Below, one piece after another: positions 28,529 to 41,983 of a stretch of 64,000 bases of DNA (within the stretch, counting starts at the first letter, position 1; every line of letters starts with the position of its first letter). The position numbers and the translations under genes were made by a program. The DNA is from Nitrospiria bacterium (GTDB lineage: Bacteria > Nitrospirota > Nitrospiria > JACQBZ01). The stretch covers positions 62,001-126,000 of the forward strand of contig DATKAN010000026.1 of NCBI GenBank assembly GCA_035498035.1, read 5' to 3'. The notes beneath the pieces were generated by a model that saw nothing but the letters and a program-made list of their open reading frames with translations, was not told the origin of the DNA and did no database searches.

Positions 28529-28588
28529 TAATTGACTCAAAGGCTCGTTCATCGGACCCGGCATGGCCGGTAAGCGGAGGTGCTCACC

Positions 28589-29473
28589 ATGAAAAGATAT
28601 CTTTGGACCCTAAATATTCTATTTCTTCTGGGTTTCAGTTATTTTGTCGCTGATCTGGTGAGTCTATTTATCGGCCGCCAACTGGATTTGCCGGCCCGTT
28701 CACCCGCGGTGGAATGGGCCGCTACGACCGAGGCGCAGGTGAAACCGACGACCGAGGTCTACTCCTCCATTGTGGACCGGAATATTTTTGGGATCAAACC
28801 AGCCTCGGCCATCGCTCCCCCCCAAGCGGTGGCGCCTGAGCCGGTTCAACTGCCGCCGCTCCGGGTCCGGCTGGTGGGAACGAGCGTGGGCGAGGCCGAC
28901 GAATCCCTTGCCGTGATCGAGGACTTGGGGACGAAGGAACAGCGTGTTTATCACATCGACGACCTCCTCGAACCGGATGCGAAGCTGATTGAGGTCGAGC
29001 GAAATGAAGTTACGTTTCTACGCGGGAAGATTCGGGAGACCGTAACGGTTGAGGAGGGGGACACCCCGACCCAAACGCCGCCGGGCCAGTCCCTTTTAGG
29101 CCGGCCCGCATCCGCGGTTCCCGCCGTGATCCCCCGGTCGACAGGAACTCAGAACAGTTGGGTTCTGGACAAGCAGGAAGTGGCGTCCGCCCTCGAAAAT
29201 CTACCGCAGCTTTTGACCAAAGCCCGGGTGGTACCTGACCTTACCCCGGATGGTAAAAGCGACGGATTCCGGATCGTCTCGATCGCGCCCGCCAGTTTTT
29301 ATGAACGGATCGGGCTACGGAACGGGGATGTGATTCAACGCATCAACGGAATCGAGGTGAAGGATCCCCAGTCGTTTATGCAGGTCTTCACACAACTCAA
29401 GGATGAGACCAACATCTCGATGGACTTGATGCGGAATAACCAAAAAGAGTCGTTCTCCTATGAGATTCGTTGA
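28589..29473 (+). CDS. gspC: type II secretion inner-membrane protein GspC
   Basis: 294 aa. One N-terminal membrane helix (about 7-28), a homology region (about 60-150; YSSIVDRNIFGIKP, then VRLVGTSVGEADESLAVIED), a linker, and a C-terminal PDZ domain (about 200-294; GFRIVSIAPASFYERIGLRNGD). GspC links the inner-membrane platform to the secretin. The ATG at 28589 has GGAGG 8 nt upstream; a GTG at 28580 is less likely because it overlaps that site. First gene of the gsp operon. Confidence 0.9.
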   Translation: MKRYLWTLNILFLLGFSYFVADLVSLFIGRQLDLPARSPAVEWAATTEAQVKPTTEVYSSIVDRNIFGIKPASAIAPPQAVAPEPVQLPPLRVRLVGTSVGEADESLAVIEDLGTKEQRVYHIDDLLEPDAKLIEVERNEVTFLRGKIRETVTVEEGDTPTQTPPGQSLLGRPASAVPAVIPRSTGTQNSWVLDKQEVASALENLPQLLTKARVVPDLTPDGKSDGFRIVSIAPASFYERIGLRNGDVIQRINGIEVKDPQSFMQVFTQLKDETNISMDLMRNNQKESFSYEIR

Positions 29474-31262
29474 GGGGACGGCGAACGGTTCGCGTCTGTT
29501 CCGCCCTCTAAAACGAGTCCAAACGATTCGAATGCGGAGTTGCATGCCGATCGTTCATTTTGTTCCATGGGTTTTCGGGTTGTTCATGGGAATTGGGGCC
29601 TTTCTCCCGGTGGACCTTGCGGCCGATGCCCGAGCTCAAGAAACCCCCGCGATTCCATCTCCCCCGTCTTCATCTTCGAAACCGGAGTCGGTGAAACCCT
29701 CCACGGGAGGAGTCGTTACACCGTCTCAAGAAAAACAGGCGAACCCGTCTCTTCCTGCTCCATCTCAATTGCCGGAACCGCCAAAACCGTCCAAGGAAGA
29801 GATCCCTTCCTCGTCTCAAGAACAGCCGGCGAACCCATCTCTCCCCTCACCACCTCCGACGCCGACGCTGCCGAAGCCGACGAAGGACCGGCTCATCACC
29901 CTCGATTTCAACAACGTTGACCTTCCGGTCTTCGTGAAATTTGTCAGTGAAATCATTGGGAAAAACTTCATTATTGATGAACGGGTCCGTGGAAAGGTGA
30001 CCATTTTTTCTCCCTCAAAAATCTCGGTGGACAAAGTCTACCAAGTTTTTCAATCGGTCATGGAAATCAAGGGCCTCACAGCCGTCCCGGCCGGTGAAAT
30101 GATTCAGATTCTTCCGGCATCGGAAGTGCCCCCGGAGCGAGATATCAATGTGTATTATCTTGAAAACGCCAATGCGGAGGAAGCGGCCAAACTGCTTACA
30201 AGCTTGGCGACCCGGACCGCCGCCCCGCCCGTCCCCGGCCGCCCTGCCGGCAAATCCCCGGGGGAGTTTGAGGGAACGGTTCAAATCATACCGGACAAGG
30301 CGACCAACGCCTTGCTAATCACGGCTTCCCCAAAAGATTACGAAATGCTAAAGGAAGTGATCAAAAAAATTGATGTGCGTCGACGCCAGGTCTATGTCGA
30401 GGCCGTGATCATGGAGGTTGCACAGGACAAACTGCGGCAATTGGGAACCCAATTAGGTGCGTTGGGCGGCTACCAGACAAACAATCAAAATGTCACGATT
30501 TACGGTTCGGCCAATGAGGACCTCTCCGAACTTGCCAACTTGACGAACATAACGGGGGTGGCGGGGGGTACGGGGGGAGGATTGAATCTTGCGCTTAGCA
30601 CCGTGAATGTCAAGATCCTCCTTTCGGCGTTGGAGAGTGCGACGGATACGAATGTGCTGTCCACGCCGCAAATCTTGACGACCAACAACCAGAAGGCCAA
30701 GATCGTCGTCGCCCAAAATGTTCCCTTTATCACCGGGAACAATCAGACGGTCGGCGGGGTGACGCAAACGCAGATCACCCGTCAGGACGTCGGTGTAACG
30801 CTTGAATTGACACCCGAAATCCTGGAGGGAGATCGCGTCCGCATGGATGTCCGCCAAGAAATCTCCAGTCTCGCCGACACTCCGCAGGCGGTTCTGATCC
30901 AGTTGGGGCCCACCACGAACAAACGGGAGGCGACGACGACGGTGATTGTGGACAATCACCAAACGGTGGTGATCGGGGGCCTGATGCGGGACGACATAAA
31001 CAACACCACAACGAAGATCCCTCTTCTGGGAGATATCCCGCTGATTGGTTGGTTGTTTAAGTATCAGTCCAAGCATGTTACCAAAGCGAATCTCCTCATT
31101 TTTCTCACCCCACATGTTGTCCATGACAATAATGACCTGGATTCACTCCGGCAGCAGAAAACGGAGTACATGAAAACGCATTTGGTAAAAGAGGCCCTGC
31201 GAGATCAAACGCTGACCGGAGAATTTCTGAACAGCATCAACCCCCCCCAGAACAAGAGGTAG
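29460..31262 (+). CDS. gspD: type II secretion outer-membrane secretin GspD (short form)
   Basis: 600 aa. Signal peptide (starting here or at Met-25), a Pro/Ser-rich linker (about 55-142) with two near copies of QEKQANPSLPAPS / QEQPANPSLPSPP, an N0 domain (about 145-215), one further N domain (228-307), then the secretin core (310-555) with the signature QTVVIGGLMRDD...PLLGDIPLIGWLFK. Usual GspD has N0-N1-N2-N3; here two repeats are missing and the one left (ending QVYVEAVIMEV) looks like N3. It forms the outer-membrane channel. It overlaps gspC by 14 bp if the first ATG is used. Confidence 0.92.
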   Translation: MRFVEGTANGSRLFRPLKRVQTIRMRSCMPIVHFVPWVFGLFMGIGAFLPVDLAADARAQETPAIPSPPSSSSKPESVKPSTGGVVTPSQEKQANPSLPAPSQLPEPPKPSKEEIPSSSQEQPANPSLPSPPPTPTLPKPTKDRLITLDFNNVDLPVFVKFVSEIIGKNFIIDERVRGKVTIFSPSKISVDKVYQVFQSVMEIKGLTAVPAGEMIQILPASEVPPERDINVYYLENANAEEAAKLLTSLATRTAAPPVPGRPAGKSPGEFEGTVQIIPDKATNALLITASPKDYEMLKEVIKKIDVRRRQVYVEAVIMEVAQDKLRQLGTQLGALGGYQTNNQNVTIYGSANEDLSELANLTNITGVAGGTGGGLNLALSTVNVKILLSALESATDTNVLSTPQILTTNNQKAKIVVAQNVPFITGNNQTVGGVTQTQITRQDVGVTLELTPEILEGDRVRMDVRQEISSLADTPQAVLIQLGPTTNKREATTTVIVDNHQTVVIGGLMRDDINNTTTKIPLLGDIPLIGWLFKYQSKHVTKANLLIFLTPHVVHDNNDLDSLRQQKTEYMKTHLVKEALRDQTLTGEFLNSINPPQNKR

Positions 31263-31270
31263 TTTCGTCC

Positions 31271-32983
31271 ATGTCCAGCCCGTGGCAACGCATCGGTCAG
31301 ATTCTTCAAGAGAAGTATGCCGTTTCTGCCGAACAGATCCGAGAGGCCTTGGCCCAGCAACTGGAAAAAGGCGGGCTGCTCGGCGAGGTCTTGGTCCGAA
31401 TGCGCGCGGTTAAGGAGAGCGAGGTTCTGGAGGCATTGGGCCGTCAGTTTCATCTTCCCTGCCTTCCGGACCTAGTCCCGACCCAGGTGGATCCCGTACT
31501 CCTTTCCAAAATCCCGATCGGGTTTGCCAAACGATACGAGATTCTCCCCATTCGTGAGGAGAACGGCCGTGTTATGACGGCCACGGCCAATCCGCTCCAG
31601 ATCTCCGCATTGGACGATGCCCGCCTTTTGCTGGCTCGCGATGTTCAGCCTGTTCTGGTCTCCGCCAAGACGATTTTAAATTGCATCAACCAAGTCTATG
31701 ACCGTGCGTCCGATACCGCTCAACAGGTGATCGAGGACTTGAGCACAGAAAGCCTGGACCTCCTGGCCAGCGAGCTCCAGGAGCCTGTGGATCTTCTGGA
31801 AGCCACGGACGAAGCGCCGATCATCCGCTTGGTGAACTCAACCTTGTTCCAGGCCGTGAAGGACCGGGCGAGCGACATTCACATAGAGCCGTTTGAACGC
31901 GACTTGGAGATCCGGTACCGGATCGATGGAATCATGTACAAGATTCTGACGCCCCCGAAGCGGTTTCAATCCAGCATCATTTCTCGGATCAAGATCATGG
32001 CCGGATTGAATATCGCCGAGAAGCGTCTGCCCCAGGACGGTCGGATCGGGATCAAGATCGCCGGTCGGGATGTCGACATCCGCGTCTCGGTCATTCCCAC
32101 GGCCCATGGCGAGCGGGTTGTCTTGCGGCTTCTGGACAAAAGCACCAGTCTTTTGAATCTCGAGGACATCGGTCTGACGAAGGAGGACCGGGAGACGATG
32201 TTTCATTTGATTCAGCTCAGCCACGGCATCTTGCTGGTCACGGGACCGACCGGAAGCGGAAAGACGACGACACTGTATGCGGCGTTGAACCGGATTAACT
32301 CCCCCGACAAAAACATCATCACCATTGAGGATCCCATCGAGTATCAGCTCAAGGGAATCGGACAAATGCAGGTCAATCCCAAAATCAACTTGACCTTCGC
32401 CAACGGTCTCCGTTCCATACTCCGCCAGGACCCGGACGTGATCATGGTGGGAGAAATCCGGGACGCCGAGACGGCCGAGATCGCGATTCATGCGTCGCTG
32501 ACCGGCCATCTGGTTTTTTCGACGCTTCACACCAACGATACGGCGGGGGCCATCACGCGTCTAATCGACATGGGGATCGAACCCTTTCTGGTCGCCTCCT
32601 CCGTGGTCGCGATCTTTGCTCAGCGGTTGGTGCGATTGCTCTGTCCGGACTGTCGTCAGGCTTACTCTCCCACGCCGCAGGAGTCGTCCAAGTTGGGATT
32701 GAAAAGCGGCACGAGGCCGCCGACCTTTTATCGTGCGGTGGGTTGTGCCCGCTGCAAGAGGACCGGATACCACGGACGGACCGGAATTTACGAAATTCTT
32801 CTGATCGATGACGAAATCCGCCAGATGGTCTTGGGCAAGGTCGATTCCAACCGGATCAAAAATCGCGCCATCGAGAAGGGAATGCTGACTCTCCGGGATG
32901 ATGGTGCGCGGAAAGTCATGGAGGGCACCACTACGTTGGAGGAGGTGCTGCGCGTGACCCAGGAAGAGCTGGTGGTAGGGTAA
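31271..32983 (+). CDS. gspE: type II secretion ATPase GspE
   Basis: 570 aa. N-terminal MshEN-type domain, then the ATPase core: Walker A GPTGSGKTTT, PDVIMVGEIRDAET, TGHLVFSTLHTND. A tetracysteine zinc element (CPDC ... CARC, about residues 458-497) marks GspE/PilB enzymes. It is clearly paralogous to PilB at 6066; position between gspD and gspF assigns it to secretion. Confidence 0.94.
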   Translation: MSSPWQRIGQILQEKYAVSAEQIREALAQQLEKGGLLGEVLVRMRAVKESEVLEALGRQFHLPCLPDLVPTQVDPVLLSKIPIGFAKRYEILPIREENGRVMTATANPLQISALDDARLLLARDVQPVLVSAKTILNCINQVYDRASDTAQQVIEDLSTESLDLLASELQEPVDLLEATDEAPIIRLVNSTLFQAVKDRASDIHIEPFERDLEIRYRIDGIMYKILTPPKRFQSSIISRIKIMAGLNIAEKRLPQDGRIGIKIAGRDVDIRVSVIPTAHGERVVLRLLDKSTSLLNLEDIGLTKEDRETMFHLIQLSHGILLVTGPTGSGKTTTLYAALNRINSPDKNIITIEDPIEYQLKGIGQMQVNPKINLTFANGLRSILRQDPDVIMVGEIRDAETAEIAIHASLTGHLVFSTLHTNDTAGAITRLIDMGIEPFLVASSVVAIFAQRLVRLLCPDCRQAYSPTPQESSKLGLKSGTRPPTFYRAVGCARCKRTGYHGRTGIYEILLIDDEIRQMVLGKVDSNRIKNRAIEKGMLTLRDDGARKVMEGTTTLEEVLRVTQEELVVG

Positions 32984-32989
32984 CGGACG

Positions 32990-34252
32990 ATGGCGGTTTA
33001 CGAGTACAAGGGCCTGACCACTGAAGGCCGGGATATTTCCGGCATCATCGACGCGGATAGTCCCAAGACCGCGCGGGCAAAACTCCGGCAGTCGGGCATC
33101 TATCCGACCGATGTTGTAGAAGGCGCCGGCGAGGTGTCGTACGGGGCCGGATCCTCAATCCAAACGGACCGTTCCGGTCAGCCTCTTTCTTGGCGGTCGC
33201 GCATCCGGGTGGCGGAGCGGGTTGGAATGATGGAAGTCTCCCTGATGACCCGCCATCTCGCGACATTGACCGCAGCGAAACTCCCTTTGATGGAAGCCCT
33301 CTCCGCCCTGATGGATCAACTGGAAAAAGGTGAGTTGAAACGGATCGTGGCGGGGATTCGCGAACGGGTCAAGGAAGGCAGCTCCCTGGCGGTGGCGCTC
33401 GCGCAATACCCGTCCGTGTTTTCGGAAATCTATATCAATATGGTACGGGCGGGGGAGGCGAGCGGCACCCTGGATGGCATGCTTCTCCGACTGGCGGATT
33501 ACCTTGAATACCAGGTCAAGCTTCGCAACCAACTCATCGCCACGCTGACCTATCCCTTGTTCATGGTGGTCATCGGGGGTCTGATCCTGTTCGGACTGGT
33601 CACCTTTGTCGTTCCCAAGATCACACTGATTTTTGAGGAAGTGCATCAGGTTCTGCCGCTTCCGACGGTTATCCTCATTGCGGTTAGCCATTTCCTGAAC
33701 GGCTACTGGTGGGTCATCCTGTTGGCGGGGGCCCTGGGAATCTTCGCCCTGCAGCAATACATCAAGACGCCGGCGGGCCGGATTCAGTATGATCGCTTCC
33801 TGCTGCGGATGCCGGTCATGGGCCGGGTGACCCTCATGGTGGCCATTTCGCGTTTTACGCGGACGCTCAGTACGCTGCTCACCAGCGGCGTCCCCTTGCT
33901 TCAGGCCTTGGATGTGGTCCGAAACGTGGTTCAAAACGCGGTATTGGCCGAGGCCATCGATCGGGCCCGACAAAACATCGGCGAGGGACAGAGCCTGGCC
34001 GAACCCCTTAGAAAGAGCGGGATGTTTCCTCCGCTTGTGACGCACATGATCGCCGTCGGCGAGAAGAGCGGGGAACTGGAGCCGATGCTGATCAAGGTTT
34101 CGGAGGCTTACGACAACGAGGTGGAAGCGATTATCGGCACGCTGACGGCCCTCCTCACGCCGGTGATGATTCTGGTGATGGGAGCGATAATCGGATTTAT
34201 CGTGATGGCGATTCTTCTGCCGATCTTTGAACTCAGTCAAATCGTGAGGTAA
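32990..34252 (+). CDS. gspF: type II secretion platform protein GspF
   Basis: 420 aa. Two T2SSF domains (about 85-205 and 290-410) with three membrane helices. The repeat motif occurs as MTRHLATLTAAKLPLMEAL and FTRTLSTLLTSGVPLLQAL. It begins 6 bp after gspE and ends directly against gspG (TAA then ATG). It is about 20 residues longer than PilC because of the linker at residues 45-75. Confidence 0.94.
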   Translation: MAVYEYKGLTTEGRDISGIIDADSPKTARAKLRQSGIYPTDVVEGAGEVSYGAGSSIQTDRSGQPLSWRSRIRVAERVGMMEVSLMTRHLATLTAAKLPLMEALSALMDQLEKGELKRIVAGIRERVKEGSSLAVALAQYPSVFSEIYINMVRAGEASGTLDGMLLRLADYLEYQVKLRNQLIATLTYPLFMVVIGGLILFGLVTFVVPKITLIFEEVHQVLPLPTVILIAVSHFLNGYWWVILLAGALGIFALQQYIKTPAGRIQYDRFLLRMPVMGRVTLMVAISRFTRTLSTLLTSGVPLLQALDVVRNVVQNAVLAEAIDRARQNIGEGQSLAEPLRKSGMFPPLVTHMIAVGEKSGELEPMLIKVSEAYDNEVEAIIGTLTALLTPVMILVMGAIIGFIVMAILLPIFELSQIVR

Positions 34253-34771
34253 ATGATGGTATATGAAGTATCCGATAGGACGCAAGATTTATCCAATTTT
34301 CGAGGCGGCGCATGGTCCGCGCGGACCGCGAGCCGTCCGGGGTTTAAGCGGCGGGAATCCGGATTTACGCTGATTGAGATCATGGTGGTCGTCTTTATTC
34401 TGGCGCTGCTGGCCGGGATCGTCGTCCCCAAAATCATGGGCCGGACGGACGAGGCTCGTCGGACGGCGGCCAAGGTCCAGGTCAAGAACATCGAGGAAGG
34501 GTTGCATCTCTACAAGCTGGACAACGGCGTTTATCCCTCCACGGAACAGGGCCTGCCGGCCCTGGTGTCGGCGCCCACGATCGGCACCATCCCGCAGCAT
34601 TGGCGGGAAGGCGGATACCTCCCCAAGCTGCCCAAGGATCCGTGGGGCCACGATTACGTCTACATCAGTCCGGGTTCTCATGGGGATTACGACTTGATGA
34701 GCTACGGAGGGGACGGCGAGCCGGGGGGGGAAGGAAAGGACGCCGATGTTCAGAGCTGGGATATCGAATAG
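34253..34771 (+). CDS. gspG: major pseudopilin GspG
   Basis: 172 aa. The prepilin cleavage site is RESG|FTLIEIMVVVFI, with Glu at +5 of the mature protein. The mature protein keeps the GspG pattern (YKLDNGVYPSTEQGLPALV; LPKDPWGHDYVYISPG). The leader is about 37 residues, far longer than the usual 6-10, and no in-frame ATG, GTG or TTG lies nearer the cleavage site. It starts immediately after the gspF stop. Confidence 0.92.
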   Translation: MMVYEVSDRTQDLSNFRGGAWSARTASRPGFKRRESGFTLIEIMVVVFILALLAGIVVPKIMGRTDEARRTAAKVQVKNIEEGLHLYKLDNGVYPSTEQGLPALVSAPTIGTIPQHWREGGYLPKLPKDPWGHDYVYISPGSHGDYDLMSYGGDGEPGGEGKDADVQSWDIE

Positions 34772-35276
34772 ACGCGGCTTCACCTATCTCGAACTGGCCG
34801 TCGTGATGCTGATCCTCGGCGTGGTTGTGGCCTTGGCCTTTCCGACGATTCACACGATCGGCTCCAGCGATTTGAGGGTATCGGCCCGCCATCTGGTTCG
34901 GACGGTCTATTTCCTGGCCGATCGGGCCGCAGCGACCAAGCAGGTCTATCGACTGAATTTCGATCTGGACCGGCGGGAGTATTGGGTAGCCGTTCAATCC
35001 GGGGAAGGCGAATTCGTCCAGGTCGACACAAACGTCGTGTCGCGCACGCGATTGCCGGAAATCGTTCGGTTTGCGGATGTGAACACGCTGAAACAGGGTA
35101 AGGTGACGTTGGGAGTGGCCTACGCCGATTTTTATCCTGTGGGTCGTGTGGACAAGACAACGGTTCATTTGACCGATGAGCGGAAAGACAACTTGACGCT
35201 TGTGGTCAACCCGGTCACGGGACGGGTGAAGATTTATGATGGGTATCGAGAAGAGACAACGAACCCGTCCTTCTGA
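34746..35276 (+). CDS. gspH: minor pseudopilin GspH
   Basis: 176 aa. Short basic leader with cleavage site NRRG|FTYLELAVVMLI (Glu at +5), then a hydrophobic helix and a beta-rich GspH/FimT-type domain. It overlaps the end of gspG by 26 bp. Minor pseudopilins H-I-J-K build the tip that primes the pseudopilus. Confidence 0.85.
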   Translation: MFRAGISNRRGFTYLELAVVMLILGVVVALAFPTIHTIGSSDLRVSARHLVRTVYFLADRAAATKQVYRLNFDLDRREYWVAVQSGEGEFVQVDTNVVSRTRLPEIVRFADVNTLKQGKVTLGVAYADFYPVGRVDKTTVHLTDERKDNLTLVVNPVTGRVKIYDGYREETTNPSF

Positions 35277-35646
35277 TCGATTGGGGCACGAGGGTTTCAC
35301 GCTATTAGAGGTGGTCGTTGCGCTTTCCATTCTGGCGGTGACCTTCGTGGTTCTCCTCGGACTCCGGAATCGCGACATCCTTCAGCACCAGGAGGCGCGA
35401 TATATTACCCGGGCCACGCTTCTGGCTCAGAAAAAAATGTCCGAGGTGGAGATGGCGGGCTTTCCGCCGCTCGGCGTGGTCGCCGGCGATTTCCCCGAAC
35501 CGGACGACATATTCAATTGGACCCAAACGGTCACCACAACCCCGTTTGATTTCGCCCGCGAGGTGAATGTTACGGTGACATGGCGAGAGGGCGAAGGTCA
35601 GCAGTCGGTCATTTTGGACACCTTTGTCGTGGATGAAAAATCGTGA
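35236..35646 (+). CDS. gspI: minor pseudopilin GspI
   Basis: 136 aa. Leader of about 20 residues, cleavage site GHEG|FTLLEVVVALSI (Glu at +5). The C-terminal part has the short GspI beta domain (LAQKKMSEVEM; FAREVNVTVTW). It overlaps gspH by 41 bp and gspJ by 4 bp. Confidence 0.88.
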   Translation: MMGIEKRQRTRPSDRLGHEGFTLLEVVVALSILAVTFVVLLGLRNRDILQHQEARYITRATLLAQKKMSEVEMAGFPPLGVVAGDFPEPDDIFNWTQTVTTTPFDFAREVNVTVTWREGEGQQSVILDTFVVDEKS

Positions 35647-36302
35647 AGACGGGAGCCTGGGATGACCCGAGTGGGTTTACGCTCTTGGAACTTTTGATCG
35701 CCTTGGGGATTGCCGTGGTGCTCGTGACGCTCCTGTATGAAACCTTCAATGCGGTACTCCGGTCCACGCAGATCGTGGATCAAGAGAGTGAAATCGATCA
35801 AATGGTCCGGGTCAGTATGGAGCGGATGACGTCCGAACTGAGGTCGGCTTACTGGCGTCCGTCTTCGGACGCCGGGAGCGCGTCGGTATTTTTGTTCGAT
35901 GGCGAGGACGGGACCGGCGGCGCGCAGCCCGCGGATACGCTTCGGTTTACGACGCTTTCTCATGCCCTAGCCAGCGCAGGAAACACCGACCCGTCGGTAT
36001 CGATTGTGGAGTACGCCCTCATTCCGGATCAGGAGACTGACACGGCCGTTCTGATGCACCGGGAAGAAACGAGCCCCCTCAGTCCGTCGGTGAATAGTTT
36101 GGAAGAGTACGAACTCGGAGAGTCGGTGATCGGATTGAACTTCCGGTATTTCGACGGACAGGATTGGTGGGATCAATGGAACGATGCGGATAAAAAGAAA
36201 TTACCGAAGGCGGTCGAGATCCAACTCATCATTAAAGATCACGCCGGTCAGGAACGTCGGTTCATCACCCAAACCGATATTCCCATCGGCCAGTCGTCAT
36301 GA
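35643..36302 (+). CDS. gspJ: minor pseudopilin GspJ
   Basis: 219 aa, GTG start overlapping the gspI stop (GTGA). Cleavage site DPSG|FTLLELLIALGI (Glu at +5). GspJ pattern: SMERMTSELRSAYW near residue 60 and LNFRYFDGQDWWDQW near 165. The last 4 bp overlap gspN. Confidence 0.9.
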   Translation: MKTGAWDDPSGFTLLELLIALGIAVVLVTLLYETFNAVLRSTQIVDQESEIDQMVRVSMERMTSELRSAYWRPSSDAGSASVFLFDGEDGTGGAQPADTLRFTTLSHALASAGNTDPSVSIVEYALIPDQETDTAVLMHREETSPLSPSVNSLEEYELGESVIGLNFRYFDGQDWWDQWNDADKKKLPKAVEIQLIIKDHAGQERRFITQTDIPIGQSS

Positions 36303-37357
36303 ATCGAACCGGGTGGTTTCAATGGATGAGCCGACATCGGACGGGATTCGTTACGGTCCTCGGATACGCCACCGCCGCCGCCATCACCATCACAATCTTT
36401 GTGTATCTGACCTTTCCTTGGCAGAAACTTTCGGAATGGATACGGATCAAGGTGGAGCAGGCTGCGAATCTTCAGGTCACGGTCCAAGATAGTCGTGTCC
36501 GGTTTCCGTTCCTTCTGGTCTGGAAAGGGGTTGCGGTGAGTCGGGCGGGGCATCCCGTTCCGGTTCTAATGACGGCGGACCAGATATCCGTTGGTTGGCC
36601 GATCGGTGCGATTCTGCGGCGGCATATGGATCTGGACTTGGCGATCCAGGCGTGGGGGGGAGAAGCCCGCGGCCGTTTAACGGCTCGCCGGACAACGCAG
36701 GGAATTCAATACCACCTGGAGGCCAGTGGTAAGGGTTTCGAACTCGGAAGACTGGCGGCGTTGTTTCAGCTCCCATCCGAGGACATGTTCGGCACGGTTC
36801 GGATCAGCCGGTTTGAGCATGACTGGACGAATCAGGACTGGATGCAGGGACAGGGGATCATGTCGCTTGAGGCCAGCGAGGTGGGGTTGAAGCGGTGGGA
36901 AATCCGGTTCAAACGTTTGAACGGAAGCGTGACCTTAAAAGCAGGAATGAGCAACCTTGAAAATTTCTCGGCACAGGGTGAAGCCCTGGATCTGGTTGGC
37001 AGCGGGAGCCTTCTTCTTCGATCGGAATTTATGGAAAGTCTCTTGAATTTCAATTCGCGTGTAACACTGCACAAGCCGACCGGTCCGCTTGCGCTGTTGG
37101 CAACCCTGGCCACCCCCGACGGTCACCTGGATTTCTCGCTTCGTGGCGTTCTAAAACAGCCGACGCCTTATGTCAACGGGTCTCCATTTTCGGCCCTCGC
37201 CACCGGGAGTCCCAATCCCTCGCCCGGAGCCAACCGTCCGGTGGGTTCGACGCCCCCGGCGGTCGTCCCGCAGCGTCCTGGTTTACCCTCCGAAGCCAAT
37301 CGATTCGTGGACCCGTCGGTCCGGCCGGCCGTTACACCGGGAGCCCGCGATCAATGA
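36299..37357 (+). CDS. gspN: type II secretion protein GspN
   Basis: 352 aa. One N-terminal membrane helix (about 20-42), starting with the family's TFPWQKLSEWI-type segment, then a mostly beta-stranded periplasmic domain with AsmA-like character, then a Pro/Ser-rich tail after about 290. This fits the GspN family often found in deltaproteobacterial and Nitrospirota gsp clusters; its exact role is unclear. It overlaps gspJ and gspL by 4 bp each (ATGA). Confidence 0.75.
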   Translation: MNRTGWFQWMSRHRTGFVTVLGYATAAAITITIFVYLTFPWQKLSEWIRIKVEQAANLQVTVQDSRVRFPFLLVWKGVAVSRAGHPVPVLMTADQISVGWPIGAILRRHMDLDLAIQAWGGEARGRLTARRTTQGIQYHLEASGKGFELGRLAALFQLPSEDMFGTVRISRFEHDWTNQDWMQGQGIMSLEASEVGLKRWEIRFKRLNGSVTLKAGMSNLENFSAQGEALDLVGSGSLLLRSEFMESLLNFNSRVTLHKPTGPLALLATLATPDGHLDFSLRGVLKQPTPYVNGSPFSALATGSPNPSPGANRPVGSTPPAVVPQRPGLPSEANRFVDPSVRPAVTPGARDQ

Positions 37358-38973
37358 AGTCTCCCATGACACAGCAGATCCTGGGTCTTGATTTCGGGTC
37401 TTCTTGCGTCAAGGCGGTCTCTTTACGAAAAAAGTGGACAGGGGTGGAGTGGACCGGCGGTTATCAAAAAGATTTGTCCCGGATTCAGGACCCGTTTGAA
37501 TGGGCCAAGGAACCGTTTGTCGGATTAAAGGAATGGATCGCCGAACATCGTCTGGCGACGGACCGTGTGGTGGTCTCGGTGCCGGTCCATTTGATCTCTC
37601 TGAGAACGCTGATTCTCCCATTTCAGGATGTCCGAAAGCTCGAAAAAGTGGTTCCATTCGAGGTCGAGGGGCTTCTTCCTTATTCCCTGGAGGAGGTCGT
37701 GGTGGACTACCAGGTCACCGAGGTCGGGGAGGGCAAGTCGCATGTTTTGGTGGCGGCTGTTCCGTGTCACCTGATGAAAAATTATCTGGACCAACTCGCC
37801 CGGGCCGGGATCAATCCGGAATCGGTAGAGTTGGACGGCATGGCCTTGATGAATCTTGCGCATCAGGTCTTTTCGGAGCGGCCCGGCGCCGGAAACCGCG
37901 GGGAGGGTGATACGGCTGTGTTGGATATCGGCGCATCGAAAACGGTTGTCTGCATTCTGCACCGGGGACAGCCCCGCTTTCTGCGGACTCTTATGTGGGG
38001 AGGCCGGGATGTCACCGCGGTCCTGTCGGAGTCGTGCGGAATTTCTCCGGCCGAGGCGGAGGATTGGAAACGGCAGGCCGGTCTGATGGACGACGGGGTC
38101 TCCGCCCTTCACCAGAAAGGCGCATCCCAGGCGATCGGTCGGGCCCTCGAACCGCTGGTTTCGGAACTGATCCGGACCTTCCATGTATGCCAAAATCAGG
38201 AACCCGCGGCAAACCGTTCCAATGTAACCGAGCTGATCCTGTACGGCGGGGGAAGCAAACTCAAGGGTCTGGAGTCTCATCTCGGGTCTGAATTGGGGGT
38301 GCGTACGTTAACCCCGACGCCCAAGATCGCATCGGTTAACGGGAGCCGTTGGGATCCGGCCTTGGCCCTGAGTCTGGGGCTGGCATTGAAAGGGACCCAG
38401 CCGGCGGACGGGTCGCGGATGAACTTTCGCAAGGGGGAATTTGCGTTCGGCCGAGCGGCTGCGGCATCCCGTTCCCGCACGCGCTACGTATGGGTAGGGG
38501 CCCTTCTCGTCGCGGCGGTTGCCGCCGCGGATCTTTATATGAAGTACAACCTTCAAGTCAGCAAATATGAAGCGCTGAAGACCCAAGTCCGGGAGGAGTT
38601 TCGTGCCATGTTCCCGGACGTGACCAATGTCGTGGATGAGGTTCAGCAGGCGAAGACGGCCGTCGCCGACATGAAGAAGAAATCGGCGATGTTTGGATTG
38701 GGCGATTGGACGCCGTTACAATTGATGGCCGAAGTGACTCGACGCATGCCTCCCTCGGTAAAGATCGAGGTCCAGGATTTCGTGATCGAGCCGGGCCGCC
38801 TGCGGTTGGAAGCCGAAACGGACAGCTTCGAATCCGTGGATAAAATCAAGGCCTCGCTGGGACAGTTTGAGGCGTTCAAAGACGTGACGGTCAGCGACGC
38901 CAAGGTCAGTGCGGATCAGTCCCGGGTGCGCTTCCGCCTGACGATGACCTTGGTGCCAAAAGGGGCGGGATGA
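37354..38973 (+). CDS. gspL: type II secretion protein GspL (PilM-like actin fold fused to PilN-like domain)
   Basis: 539 aa. Residues 1-350 form an actin-like ATPase fold as in PilM/GspL cytoplasmic domains (LGLDFGSSCVKAVSL; VLDIGASKTVVCIL; LYGGGSKLKGL). A membrane helix at about 377-395 is followed by a periplasmic ferredoxin-like PilN-type domain (about 400-539). GspL recruits GspE to the membrane and pairs with GspM. ATGA overlaps with both gspN and gspM indicate coupled translation. Confidence 0.85.
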   Translation: MKSPMTQQILGLDFGSSCVKAVSLRKKWTGVEWTGGYQKDLSRIQDPFEWAKEPFVGLKEWIAEHRLATDRVVVSVPVHLISLRTLILPFQDVRKLEKVVPFEVEGLLPYSLEEVVVDYQVTEVGEGKSHVLVAAVPCHLMKNYLDQLARAGINPESVELDGMALMNLAHQVFSERPGAGNRGEGDTAVLDIGASKTVVCILHRGQPRFLRTLMWGGRDVTAVLSESCGISPAEAEDWKRQAGLMDDGVSALHQKGASQAIGRALEPLVSELIRTFHVCQNQEPAANRSNVTELILYGGGSKLKGLESHLGSELGVRTLTPTPKIASVNGSRWDPALALSLGLALKGTQPADGSRMNFRKGEFAFGRAAAASRSRTRYVWVGALLVAAVAAADLYMKYNLQVSKYEALKTQVREEFRAMFPDVTNVVDEVQQAKTAVADMKKKSAMFGLGDWTPLQLMAEVTRRMPPSVKIEVQDFVIEPGRLRLEAETDSFESVDKIKASLGQFEAFKDVTVSDAKVSADQSRVRFRLTMTLVPKGAG

Positions 38974-39557
38974 ACGCTATTTTCCAAACGGCTTTTGTTC
39001 AGCAACTTCTGGTTCGGCTTCGGCGCGACCGGATCACACCCCGTGAGCGGATCTACCTCATCATCGGCGGGGTGACGCTGATCGGACTCCTCTTCTACGG
39101 AATTTATTCCGCCGCCGTATCCTATCTCGATCGGGTAAAGGGACTCGACCGGCTGATCCGCCAGAAAGAGGAGGCCCTGGCCACGCTGGGACAATTCCGT
39201 CGGGAATATGTCCAGATCAAGACCCAGGTCGGTTCTCTGGATGAACGGATTAAAAAGGATCAGGGAAATTTTTCGCTTCTATCGTTTCTGGAGTCGCTGG
39301 CCGGGACGACCGACGTGCGGTCCAAAATCGCCTACATGCGGCCTCAGGCGGCTGTGCCGGTGGACCAGTACCGGGAGGTTTCGGTCGAGATGAAGATTGA
39401 GAATGTAACGTTGGATCAGGCTGTGCGGTTTCTTTCCGCAATCGAACAAGCCCCGCATGTTTTGAAGATCAAGAACCTGCATTTCCGGACGCGTTTTGCC
39501 AATCAGCAATATTTGGATGTGACCTTCCTCGTTAGTACCTATGAGAAGTCCGGCTGA
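38970..39557 (+). CDS. gspM: type II secretion protein GspM
   Basis: 195 aa. A cytoplasmic N-terminus, one membrane helix (about 30-52), a helical linker (DRLIRQKEEALATLGQFR) and a small periplasmic ferredoxin-like domain. It overlaps gspL by 4 bp. It ends 5 bp before the stop codon of a gene on the other strand. Confidence 0.82.
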   Translation: MNAIFQTAFVQQLLVRLRRDRITPRERIYLIIGGVTLIGLLFYGIYSAAVSYLDRVKGLDRLIRQKEEALATLGQFRREYVQIKTQVGSLDERIKKDQGNFSLLSFLESLAGTTDVRSKIAYMRPQAAVPVDQYREVSVEMKIENVTLDQAVRFLSAIEQAPHVLKIKNLHFRTRFANQQYLDVTFLVSTYEKSG

Positions 39558-39562
39558 AGGGA

Positions 39563-40453
39563 TTAGGAACCGGCGGCGGCATCGATGGTCGGGTAGAGCG
39601 GATAGAAGTGGGAGTTGGGCTGGATGGCATCCAGCAATCCATCCGTGAAAAGGTCGAATCGTCCGTTGCCGTCTGTGTCGTCAAAGAAGAACATGCTGCC
39701 TGCGTGGACGGTCAGTTTGACGGCAAACGTTCCTTTCGGGCTGCTCGGTATGTGGAGAAATTTTGGAAGATCAATTGTGACGGTGGAACTGTAGATGTGA
39801 TCGGGGAACCGGGAAGCCGGGACCTGCAAGGGGACAGTGGGTCTAGACGCCGCGAGCGATATGTAGGCCCCGTTGCTGGTGTCTATCCAGCTAAAGTTTG
39901 GGTTGCTTGTGACGTCGCCGACGAGGACCTCGCCCTCGTTGACCGGCGCGGCGAGGAGCGGATCGGTCAGGTCGAGCGTATAGAACCGAAACCGTTGATT
40001 GAGGGGAACGTTGTTCACGTACACCGGGACTTGGAGTTCGAAGTAGGTCAATTCGAGCTGCACCTGGCTGAAGTCGCATGGACATCCGGAGGGGAAGGCG
40101 TTGTTGATCTCGGCGGACTGGGCGGTTGTGGTAAGGTCCAGGACCAGGGGCGTGGCGCTGTTCTGGGTATCGAAAATTGTGTAGGATGGATCGGTTTCTT
40201 GCGACATGATCAACCGGACGCTCTTGACCCCGACCGTTACGACCGAGTTGTTTGGGGATAGAAAACTGTCAGAATAGCTGTCGCTGTCACCGCTGGGGGG
40301 CTCATTGCTGAAATCGGCCACGAATACCGCCTCAATGCCATCGTTTTTATTATTACCGCAGGCGGCGAGTAGAAGGGAAAAAAGAAATAATCCCGCGGCC
40401 CAGACCCACGCTGCGGCCGGCACATGTTTTCGAGTTGAAAGGAACGATTTCAT
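39563..40453 (-). CDS. predicted lipoprotein encoded antisense inside the gsp cluster
   Basis: 296 aa. Signal peptide with lipobox LLAAC (Cys about 32). The mature protein is beta-rich and Asp/Ser/Thr/Pro-rich, with a CPC pair (SGCPCDF) and an EF-hand-like Ca2+ loop DDTDGNGRFD near residue 255. I do not recognise a family. It sits on the minus strand between gspM (stops 5 bp apart) and gspK (starts 21 bp apart). Either it is a secreted or surface-displayed client of this T2SS, or it is a chance insertion; the first is inference. Confidence 0.75.
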   Translation of the reverse strand: MKSFLSTRKHVPAAAWVWAAGLFLFSLLLAACGNNKNDGIEAVFVADFSNEPPSGDSDSYSDSFLSPNNSVVTVGVKSVRLIMSQETDPSYTIFDTQNSATPLVLDLTTTAQSAEINNAFPSGCPCDFSQVQLELTYFELQVPVYVNNVPLNQRFRFYTLDLTDPLLAAPVNEGEVLVGDVTSNPNFSWIDTSNGAYISLAASRPTVPLQVPASRFPDHIYSSTVTIDLPKFLHIPSSPKGTFAVKLTVHAGSMFFFDDTDGNGRFDLFTDGLLDAIQPNSHFYPLYPTIDAAAGS

Positions 40454-40474
40454 CTTCGATATTATTGTAGCAGA

Positions 40475-41467
40475 ATGGCGATCCGTTTGAAAATAATAAG
40501 TCGAGGAGTCGCGAAATCAGGGCTCGACGTGCCGTTCCGTAACGAGCAAGGGATCGCGCTGCTCCTGACCCTGGTGATTCTGGTGCTGCTCACGGCCATC
40601 ATCGTGGAATTCGATTATGGCGCCAAAGTGAATTTAATCACGGCCGGAAATTTCCGAGATGAGGTGCAGGCCATTTATCTGGCCAAATCGGGCGTGGCCG
40701 CGGCCCGCGCTGCGCTGAAGGATGACGCTCTACACCACGGGGCCTACGACGCCTTGACCGAACTGTGGGCGCAACCCATACCGGCCTATCCGGTGGGCGA
40801 GGGAGCCGTCTCGATCGAGATCACGGATGAATCCGGCAAAATCGACATCAACCGTCTGGGAAATAAAGATCCTACGGTGAGGAACGATACCCAAGCCATA
40901 TTGATCCGACTCCTGGAAGTCCTGGAGGTGGATCGAAATATGATCGAGCCGATCGTCCAGGCGGCCCAGAATTGGGTCGATTCGAACTCCATACAAGACT
41001 GCCCCGAAGAATTCTATTATGAGCAGCAGACTCCTCCTTATCGTTGCAAAAAGGCCTTCATGGACACCCTCTCGGAATTACTTCTGGTAAGGGGGGTCAC
41101 CCCGGAGATCTATAAGAAAATCCAGCCCTATGTCACGACGGTTTCCTCCCCATTTCACCCTATCAATGTCAATACGGCTGAACTTCCGATTATAGAAGCG
41201 CTGGATGAGAATATCAATGCGGATATCGCGGCCTGCATCCAGGACCGTCGGCCTTATGAAAATAGTTCCATGTCCGATTTCTTCGGTTGCGGGCAGGCTG
41301 TCGGCATATGCAATATGACTTCGCCCTGTCGAAGACAGATCGGGGTTCTAAGCAGCTATTTCTCGGTGAAATCGCATGCAACGATCCATGACACCGAGAA
41401 GATCATCACGGCATTGATCAAACGACAAGGCAGTACTACAAACCTTCTATCCTGGCAAGTCGAGTAG
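40475..41467 (+). CDS. gspK: minor pseudopilin GspK
   Basis: 330 aa. Leader of about 26 residues, cleavage site NEQG|IALLLTLVILVLL; like other GspK proteins it lacks the Glu at +5. A large alpha-helical insert domain follows, with DESGKIDINRLG and the SAM-like repeats (HPINVNTAELPIIEAL) typical of GspK. It lies apart from H-I-J, after gspM and the antisense lipoprotein gene, so it may need its own promoter. Confidence 0.87.
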   Translation: MAIRLKIISRGVAKSGLDVPFRNEQGIALLLTLVILVLLTAIIVEFDYGAKVNLITAGNFRDEVQAIYLAKSGVAAARAALKDDALHHGAYDALTELWAQPIPAYPVGEGAVSIEITDESGKIDINRLGNKDPTVRNDTQAILIRLLEVLEVDRNMIEPIVQAAQNWVDSNSIQDCPEEFYYEQQTPPYRCKKAFMDTLSELLLVRGVTPEIYKKIQPYVTTVSSPFHPINVNTAELPIIEALDENINADIAACIQDRRPYENSSMSDFFGCGQAVGICNMTSPCRRQIGVLSSYFSVKSHATIHDTEKIITALIKRQGSTTNLLSWQVE

Positions 41468-41533: not shown

Positions 41534-41983
41534 CTATTCCATCTGAACCGACTTAATACTGAACTTGATCCTTCCTTCCATCCACTGGTCCGGACAGTTT
41601 TCCGTATCTTGGATAAAATTCCCGATCTCCTGCGGGTTCACGGCGCGAAGATCGCCCTTGGCGTTCCCTGGAACGATGACGCGGAGGGGCAATGCCAGAT
41701 CTTCCTGAGTCAGCCTCTTTCCCTTCGCGTCCAGCATCTCAAGATGAAGCGTGAAACCTTTGACCGGTTGACTTCCCGTGTTTTTGATTTCACCGAACAC
41801 CTCGCAGACGACCCTATCCCGCTGGAAGTCCTGGTAGCGGTGCGCGTGCACGGCTAAGGGAGTGATCGGCCATCGCTCTTTCGCCGGTTCCGCCGGTCGG
41901 CTAAACAAGACAAGACAGAAAAGCGCGATAACACTGATTAGACAAAAACGCATCAAATTCGCTTGGCCTCGAATTGTGTTCAT
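41534..41983 (-). CDS. exported protein with FxLYD-like domain
   Basis: 149 aa. N-terminal signal sequence (either from this ATG or from Met-11 at 41953), then a single immunoglobulin-like domain: VVCEVFGEIKNTGSQPVKGF and LEMLDAKGKRL match the FxLYD style. Such domains are common in envelope proteins of unknown function. It is divergent from the helicase gene. Confidence 0.6.
   Translation of the reverse strand: MNTIRGQANLMRFCLISVIALFCLVLFSRPAEPAKERWPITPLAVHAHRYQDFQRDRVVCEVFGEIKNTGSQPVKGFTLHLEMLDAKGKRLTQEDLALPLRVIVPGNAKGDLRAVNPQEIGNFIQDTENCPDQWMEGRIKFSIKSVQME

What the first reader, a model, noticed from the sequence alone, without database searches (positions are those of the whole stretch)
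39563..40453. Lipoprotein gene antisense inside the T2SS operon
A 296-aa lipoprotein of no known family, with an EF-hand-like Ca2+ loop and a CPC pair, is encoded on the opposite strand between gspM and gspK. The gaps are only 5 and 21 bp, too tight for a recent random insertion with its own terminator. It could be a dedicated T2SS client or surface lipoprotein; transcription against gspM/gspK could also regulate them.
Basis: partly seen in the sequence, partly recalled or inferred. Interest (0 to 1): 0.6.

Follow-up and report, generated by a model that had tools for sequence, protein, structure and literature searches.

The report
Antisense lipoprotein gene inside T2SS operon
Inside a bacterial secretion-machine operon sits an unnamed lipoprotein gene that runs backwards and has its own promoter; the same gene sits in the same slot in three distantly related Nitrospiria families, so it is probably an accessory or cargo of that machine rather than a chance insertion.

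Summary
Window 39563-40453 (-) encodes a 296-aa lipoprotein of no known family between gspM and gspK, with gaps of 5 and 21 bp, in an otherwise complete gspCDEFGHIJNLM-K operon. Homologues occur in 12 of 270 Nitrospiria genomes, in three families including Candidatus Manganitrophus. They occur only in this slot and orientation. In 38 other Nitrospiria clusters gspM and gspK abut.

The gene is under purifying selection (dN/dS 0.18-0.43). All 13 loci carry an extended -10 (TGnTAnnnT) 6-10 nt before its ATG on the antisense strand, which predicts a nearly leaderless transcript. Only one of the 38 gene-less junctions keeps this motif. That genome lies inside the window's own family, so it looks like a deletion scar. 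The gene is therefore probably ancient, vertically inherited and repeatedly lost.

Best explanation: an accessory surface or outer-membrane lipoprotein, most likely cargo of this GspN-containing T2SS. The evidence is linkage, fast evolution, presence of GspN and a G/N/D/S-rich N-terminus. A pilotin is disfavoured: the GspD tail is unchanged where the gene is lost. Mutual antisense regulation ("noncontiguous operon") is possible but untested. The EF-hand and CPC features are not conserved across the family.

The parts
39563..40453 (-). Lipoprotein gene, 296 aa (family unnamed)
40464..40472 (-). Extended -10 promoter element TGCTACAAT of the lipoprotein gene; its 3' end lies 10 nt before the ATG, predicting a leader of about 0-4 nt
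   Evidence: motif TGnTAnnnT at 6-10 nt in 13/13 loci; 4 of 1836 ATGs in the window by chance; also listed by the promoter scan, TACAAT with TG
40358..40369 (-). Lipobox LAAC (residues 29-32), followed by GNNKNDG
   Evidence: sequence; Cys32-Gly33 invariant in 12 homologues
40268..40291 (-). Conserved acidic stretch GD...D (residues 55-62), putative metal site
   Evidence: invariant columns G55, D56, D62; metal binding is inference
39638..39682 (-). Conserved DxTD...F...DG loop (residues 258-272), putative metal site, not a canonical EF-hand
   Evidence: D258, T260, D261, F266 invariant; metal binding is inference
40076..40084 (-). CPC motif (C124, C126), family-specific
   Evidence: present only in the window's family
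38970..39557 (+). gspM (PilO-like); convergent with the lipoprotein gene, 5 bp apart
   Evidence: Pfam PilO 35.7 bits, T2SSM sub-threshold
40475..41467 (+). gspK; divergent from the lipoprotein gene, 21 bp apart
   Evidence: Pfam T2SSK_1st 74.3 bits
37354..38973 (+). gspL
   Evidence: Pfam PilM_2, T2SSL, GspL_C
36299..37357 (+). gspN, Leptospira-type (TIGR04411)
   Evidence: NCBIfam TIGR04411 107.8 bits, cut-off 50
28580..36302 (+). gspC, D, E, F, G, H, I, J in order
   Evidence: NCBIfam for C, D, E, G; F, H, I, J by order and similarity

Best explanation
The gene encodes an accessory lipoprotein dedicated to this T2SS, most likely a cargo. Proposed steps: (1) RNA polymerase starts at a conserved extended -10 promoter squeezed between this gene and gspK, giving a nearly leaderless antisense mRNA [motif and its conservation shown; transcription inferred]. 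(2) The protein is exported by Sec and lipidated at Cys32 [lipobox shown; processing inferred]. (3) It is carried across the outer membrane by the adjacent GspN-containing T2SS and stays on the outer face as a fast-evolving all-beta, possibly Ca2+-binding surface protein [inferred]. (4) The gene entered this slot before the three families diverged, was inherited vertically, and was cleanly deleted in many lineages that did not need it [inferred from distribution and one scar].
For: Linkage: the homologue is found once per genome (one genome shows it split over two contig ends), only antisense between gspM and gspK or beside the one of these on a broken contig, in 12/12 genomes of three families, including complete genome CP114561. 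None occurs in genomes without a gspK match. Real and selected: dN/dS 0.18-0.43. Own promoter: TGnTAnnnT 6-10 nt before the ATG in 13/13 loci, chance about 0.8% per locus. It is absent from 37 of 38 gene-less junctions. Vertical descent: flanking GspM/GspK of family f12 are closest to gene-less f11/f15 (57-63%), not to f1 (40-42%), while the lipoprotein is about equally distant among f1, f12 and f5 (26-30%). G003, sister to the window's genus with 100% support, lacks the gene but keeps ATTGTAACA at the junction. Cargo rather than machine part: it evolves faster than GspM (59 v 81% identity within f1; 61 v 90% within f12) and is dispensable to many T2SSs. GspN, which A. baumannii needs for surface lipoproteins (PMC12802150), is present in all three lineages. 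P2'-P8' after the lipid Cys is 62% G/S/N/D, resembling the sorting motif in that paper.
Against: No localisation or secretion data exist. The GspN here is the Leptospira-type family, and whether it acts like the A. baumannii one is unknown. In the f5 genome gspN is unlinked. GspN is also common in clusters lacking the lipoprotein. A G/N/D/S-rich N-terminus and fast evolution are common among lipoproteins, and no adequate background set could be built. Counting steps alone, three independent gains cost fewer changes than one gain and many losses.
Confidence: 0.45

Rival explanations
1. Regulatory reading: the arrangement is a noncontiguous operon. The antisense lipoprotein mRNA and the gsp operon mRNA overlap over about 0.9 kb and restrain each other (polymerase collision, RNase III), separating gspK, the last gene, from the rest, so machine and lipoprotein are expressed reciprocally. 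It can coexist with the cargo reading.
For: Conserved antisense promoter; no convincing terminator or separate gspK promoter found in the window; gspK sits downstream of an antisense gene in all 12 genomes. Such operons are described, e.g. S. aureus men (PMC7154746).
Against: No transcript data. The consensus scan cannot see all promoters; a weak + strand promoter before gspK (TTGAAA-GATATT) is listed in the window. Lineages without the gene do well with contiguous operons.
Confidence: 0.2
2. Assembly factor: a pilotin-like or other outer-membrane lipoprotein that targets or stabilises the GspD secretin.
For: It is a lipoprotein without Asp at +2 and sits in the gsp operon; pilotin families are structurally diverse (AspS v PulS, PMC3542185).
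Against: The GspD C-terminal tail is the same in G003, which lost the gene, as in its relatives that keep it. Absent from most Nitrospiria T2SSs. About 28 kDa and all-beta by prediction, unlike known pilotins. Evolves faster than core parts.
Confidence: 0.1
3. Passenger: an ordinary lipoprotein with no functional tie to T2SS that landed between gspM and gspK once and stayed because it has its own promoter and relocation is rare.
For: It has its own promoter and is clean to lose (G003). No biochemical link to T2SS is shown.
Against: Retained in this slot and found nowhere else in three deeply diverged families, at the cost of splitting an operon. Not seen in any genome lacking gspK, though with 12 related positives this is weak.
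Confidence: 0.2
4. Independent insertions or horizontal transfer put homologous genes into the same slot in three lineages.
For: Step-counting parsimony; scattered distribution on the T2SS tree.
Against: Same site, orientation and promoter motif. The lipoprotein is as diverged between lineages as the flanking genes or more, and the flanks group with gene-less neighbours. No mobile-element mark was noticed.
Confidence: 0.15

Closest known systems
T2SS surface lipoprotein substrates (PulA, InvL, SslE; GspN-dependent in A. baumannii, PMC12802150)
   Same: Lipobox; gene linked to a gsp cluster; GspN encoded; G/N/D/S-rich residues after the lipid Cys; fast-evolving beta protein
   Different: No sequence or fold relation found; encoded inside the operon on the opposite strand; transport not tested; GspN here is TIGR04411
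Noncontiguous operons (S. aureus menE-menC-MW1733-ytkD-MW1731; PMC7154746)
   Same: A gene with its own antisense promoter sits inside an operon running the other way
   Different: Transcripts and mutual regulation not measured here; this one lies in a secretion operon and is conserved across three families
T2SS pilotins (PulS/OutS, AspS)
   Same: Lipoprotein linked to T2SS
   Different: Larger, all-beta by prediction, absent from most related T2SSs, GspD tail unchanged after loss
DUF4382 (PF14321) lipoproteins
   Same: Weak profile similarity over about 63 columns of the N-terminal strands (hhalign score 27.7 v at most 18.9 for 8 shuffles)
   Different: Probability only 15%; no Pfam hit for any of 12 members

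Membership tests
Bacterial lipoprotein (Sec/SPII) | N-terminal signal peptide with lipobox [LVI][ASTVI][GAS]C | tested here: met
   LAAC in the window; C32-G33 invariant in 12 homologues; lipidation itself not tested
T2SS substrate | Outer-membrane translocation depends on GspD | not testable with these tools
   needs mutants
GspN-dependent surface lipoprotein | GspN present and Gly/Ser or Asn/Asp-rich motif at P2'-P8' | tested here: inconclusive
   GspN present; 62% G/S/N/D but with Lys/Glu, and no adequate background set
T2SS pilotin | PulS/OutS or AspS family, or a fold like them | tested here: not met
   no Pfam or NCBIfam hit over cut-off; all-beta models; no PDB fold match with E <= 0.001
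T2SS pilotin | Matching secretin S-domain co-varies with presence | tested here: not met
   GspD tail kept in gene-less G003
Noncontiguous operon | Gene on the opposite strand inside an operon, with its own promoter | tested here: met
   order and conserved extended -10
Noncontiguous operon | Single mRNA spans the flanking genes and is antisense to the internal mRNA; reciprocal regulation | not testable with these tools
   no transcript data
EF-hand protein | 12-residue loop D-x-[DN]-x-[DN]-G-x-[ILV]-x-x-x-[ED], conserved in homologues | tested here: not met
   position 12 is Thr in the window; loop not conserved
DUF4382 (PF14321) | Score above the Pfam cut-off | tested here: not met
   no hit in 12 members; hhalign 15%

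The most novel reading that the evidence does not exclude
An ancient noncontiguous T2SS operon in which the gene for a dedicated cargo lipoprotein is read antisense through the middle of the operon from a near-leaderless promoter, so that cargo synthesis and expression of the tip pseudopilin gene gspK directly restrain each other.
Probability: 0.15. Interest if true: 0.7.

Novelty: new variant of a known kind. Interest (0 to 1): 0.45.

Why it matters
It names a previously unnamed lipoprotein family tied to T2SS in little-studied Nitrospiria, including the manganese oxidiser Manganitrophus, whose T2SS cargo I did not find described in the searches run here. It also gives a clean natural test of how an operon tolerates an internal gene on the opposite strand: conserved promoter, carrier and non-carrier clusters, and one scar.

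Tried and rejected
Fold search of two AlphaFold models against PDB and of one against viral proteins: no match with E <= 0.001. The f12 model's top hits are Ca2+-dependent BclA/BC2L-A lectins (E about 0.01, TM at most 0.26), too weak to use.

NCBIfam SrpA/LptM/invert_tail hits lie below cut-off; the LptM and invert_tail hits whose positions were shown fall on the signal peptide.

Weak hits in gene-less genomes (E 0.015-0.66) are other lipoproteins.

A conserved + strand promoter for gspK was looked for by eye at the junction and not found.

The 217-aa + strand ORF opposite the gene was rejected as a gene: that frame carries stops in most homologues.

Full report
OBSERVATION. The ORF at 39563-40453 (-) is 296 aa, 5 bp from gspM and 21 bp from gspK. 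The operon is gspC-D-E-F-G-H-I-J-N-L-M, the antisense lipoprotein gene, then gspK. The protein has a lipobox (LAAC|G) and no Pfam, NCBIfam (over cut-off) or PDB sequence relative.

DISTRIBUTION. A single-sequence search and a profile search of 270 genomes of the class each find the same 12 genomes: six in the window's family (f1), five in f12 and one in f5. A phylum-wide sample of 396 genomes adds none outside the class. A motif scan of 84,980 species' genomes finds only Nitrospirae/Nitrospiria records, among them complete genome CP114561.1, Candidatus Manganitrophus sp. GAC4. That scan rests on one motif, so it is not exhaustive. In every carrier the gene lies antisense between gspM and gspK, or beside the one of these present where a contig ends. 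gspK is found in 174 of 270 genomes, including all 12 carriers. In 38 carrier-free junctions examined gspM and gspK abut, with at most about 94 bp between gspM and the gspK frame.

IT IS A GENE UNDER SELECTION. dN/dS is 0.18-0.43 in ten pairs, with most differences at third positions. It evolves faster than its neighbours: mean identity within f1 is 59% against 81% (GspM) and 64% (GspK); within f12 it is 61% against 90% and 84%.

PROMOTER. On the antisense strand, TGnTAnnnT ends 6-10 nt before the ATG in 13 of 13 loci. Shuffles of the same sequences give 0.8% per locus, and only 4 of 1836 ATGs in the window have it. The f12 and f5 copies read this DNA in different gspK frames, and in L022 that gspK frame has a stop, so the motif is not explained by gspK coding. 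The spacing predicts a leader of about 0-4 nt; TANNNT about 12 bp upstream of the start is the known signature of leaderless bacterial genes (PMC3160421). This rests on motif conservation, not on mapped transcripts.

HISTORY. On a tree of GspJ, L, M and K the carriers fall in three separate places. Flanking GspM and GspK of f12 resemble carrier-free f11/f15 (57-63%) more than f1 (40-42%), while the lipoprotein is 26-30% identical between the three lineages. This fits vertical inheritance with losses better than transfer of the gene alone. G003 (family f1, sister to the window's genus at 100% support) lacks the gene, yet of 38 carrier-free junctions it alone keeps the promoter motif, ATTGTAACA on the gsp strand. 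I read this as a deletion scar. Step counting alone would favour three gains, so the point is not closed.

PROTEIN. AlphaFold models of an f1 and an f12 member are mostly beta (pLDDT 81.6 and 76.3) with no PDB match at E <= 0.001. Conserved residues include GD...D (55-62) and FFxDxTD...F...DG (255-272), compatible with metal binding, which was not tested. A faint resemblance to DUF4382 over 63 columns is a lead only.

FUNCTION. The linkage supports a T2SS role. Loss from many lineages and fast evolution favour a cargo or accessory over a core part. GspN is encoded in all three lineages, and in A. baumannii GspN carries lipoproteins to the surface with a G/S- or N/D-rich sorting motif (PMC12802150). 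The sequence after the lipid Cys here is 62% G/S/N/D. Cargo is therefore the leading reading (0.45), not a shown fact. The GspD tail in G003 matches that of carriers, which argues against a pilotin.

REGULATION. The layout matches a noncontiguous operon (PMC7154746). Whether one mRNA spans gspM-gspK, and whether the two transcripts restrain each other, is untested.

VERDICT. Observation confirmed; interpretation partly supported; new variant of a known kind; interest 0.45.

Noticed in passing
window 31271-32983 (+): GspE carries an N-terminal MshE-like c-di-GMP-binding domain (NF053729, 48.1 bits, cut-off 38), so this T2SS may respond to c-di-GMP.
   Followed up: no
window 36299-37357 (+): GspN is of the Leptospira type (TIGR04411), with at most a faint AsmA match in one homologue.
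   Followed up: partly
G014 C76:5921-6823: In the f5 genome gspN lies away from the gsp operon, where gspJ and gspL are adjacent.
   Followed up: no
L017 2641-3531: In one homologue the gsp-sense frame opposite the whole lipoprotein gene has no stop codon.
   Followed up: no
L092, G268 C108:229-1149: G268 has a second gspK with no recognisable gspM or gspL in the 6.2 kb fetched around it.
   Followed up: no
window 41534-41983 (-): A 149-aa secreted-looking protein of no Pfam family follows gspK on the opposite strand, 66 bp from its end, and is conserved within the genus.
   Followed up: no
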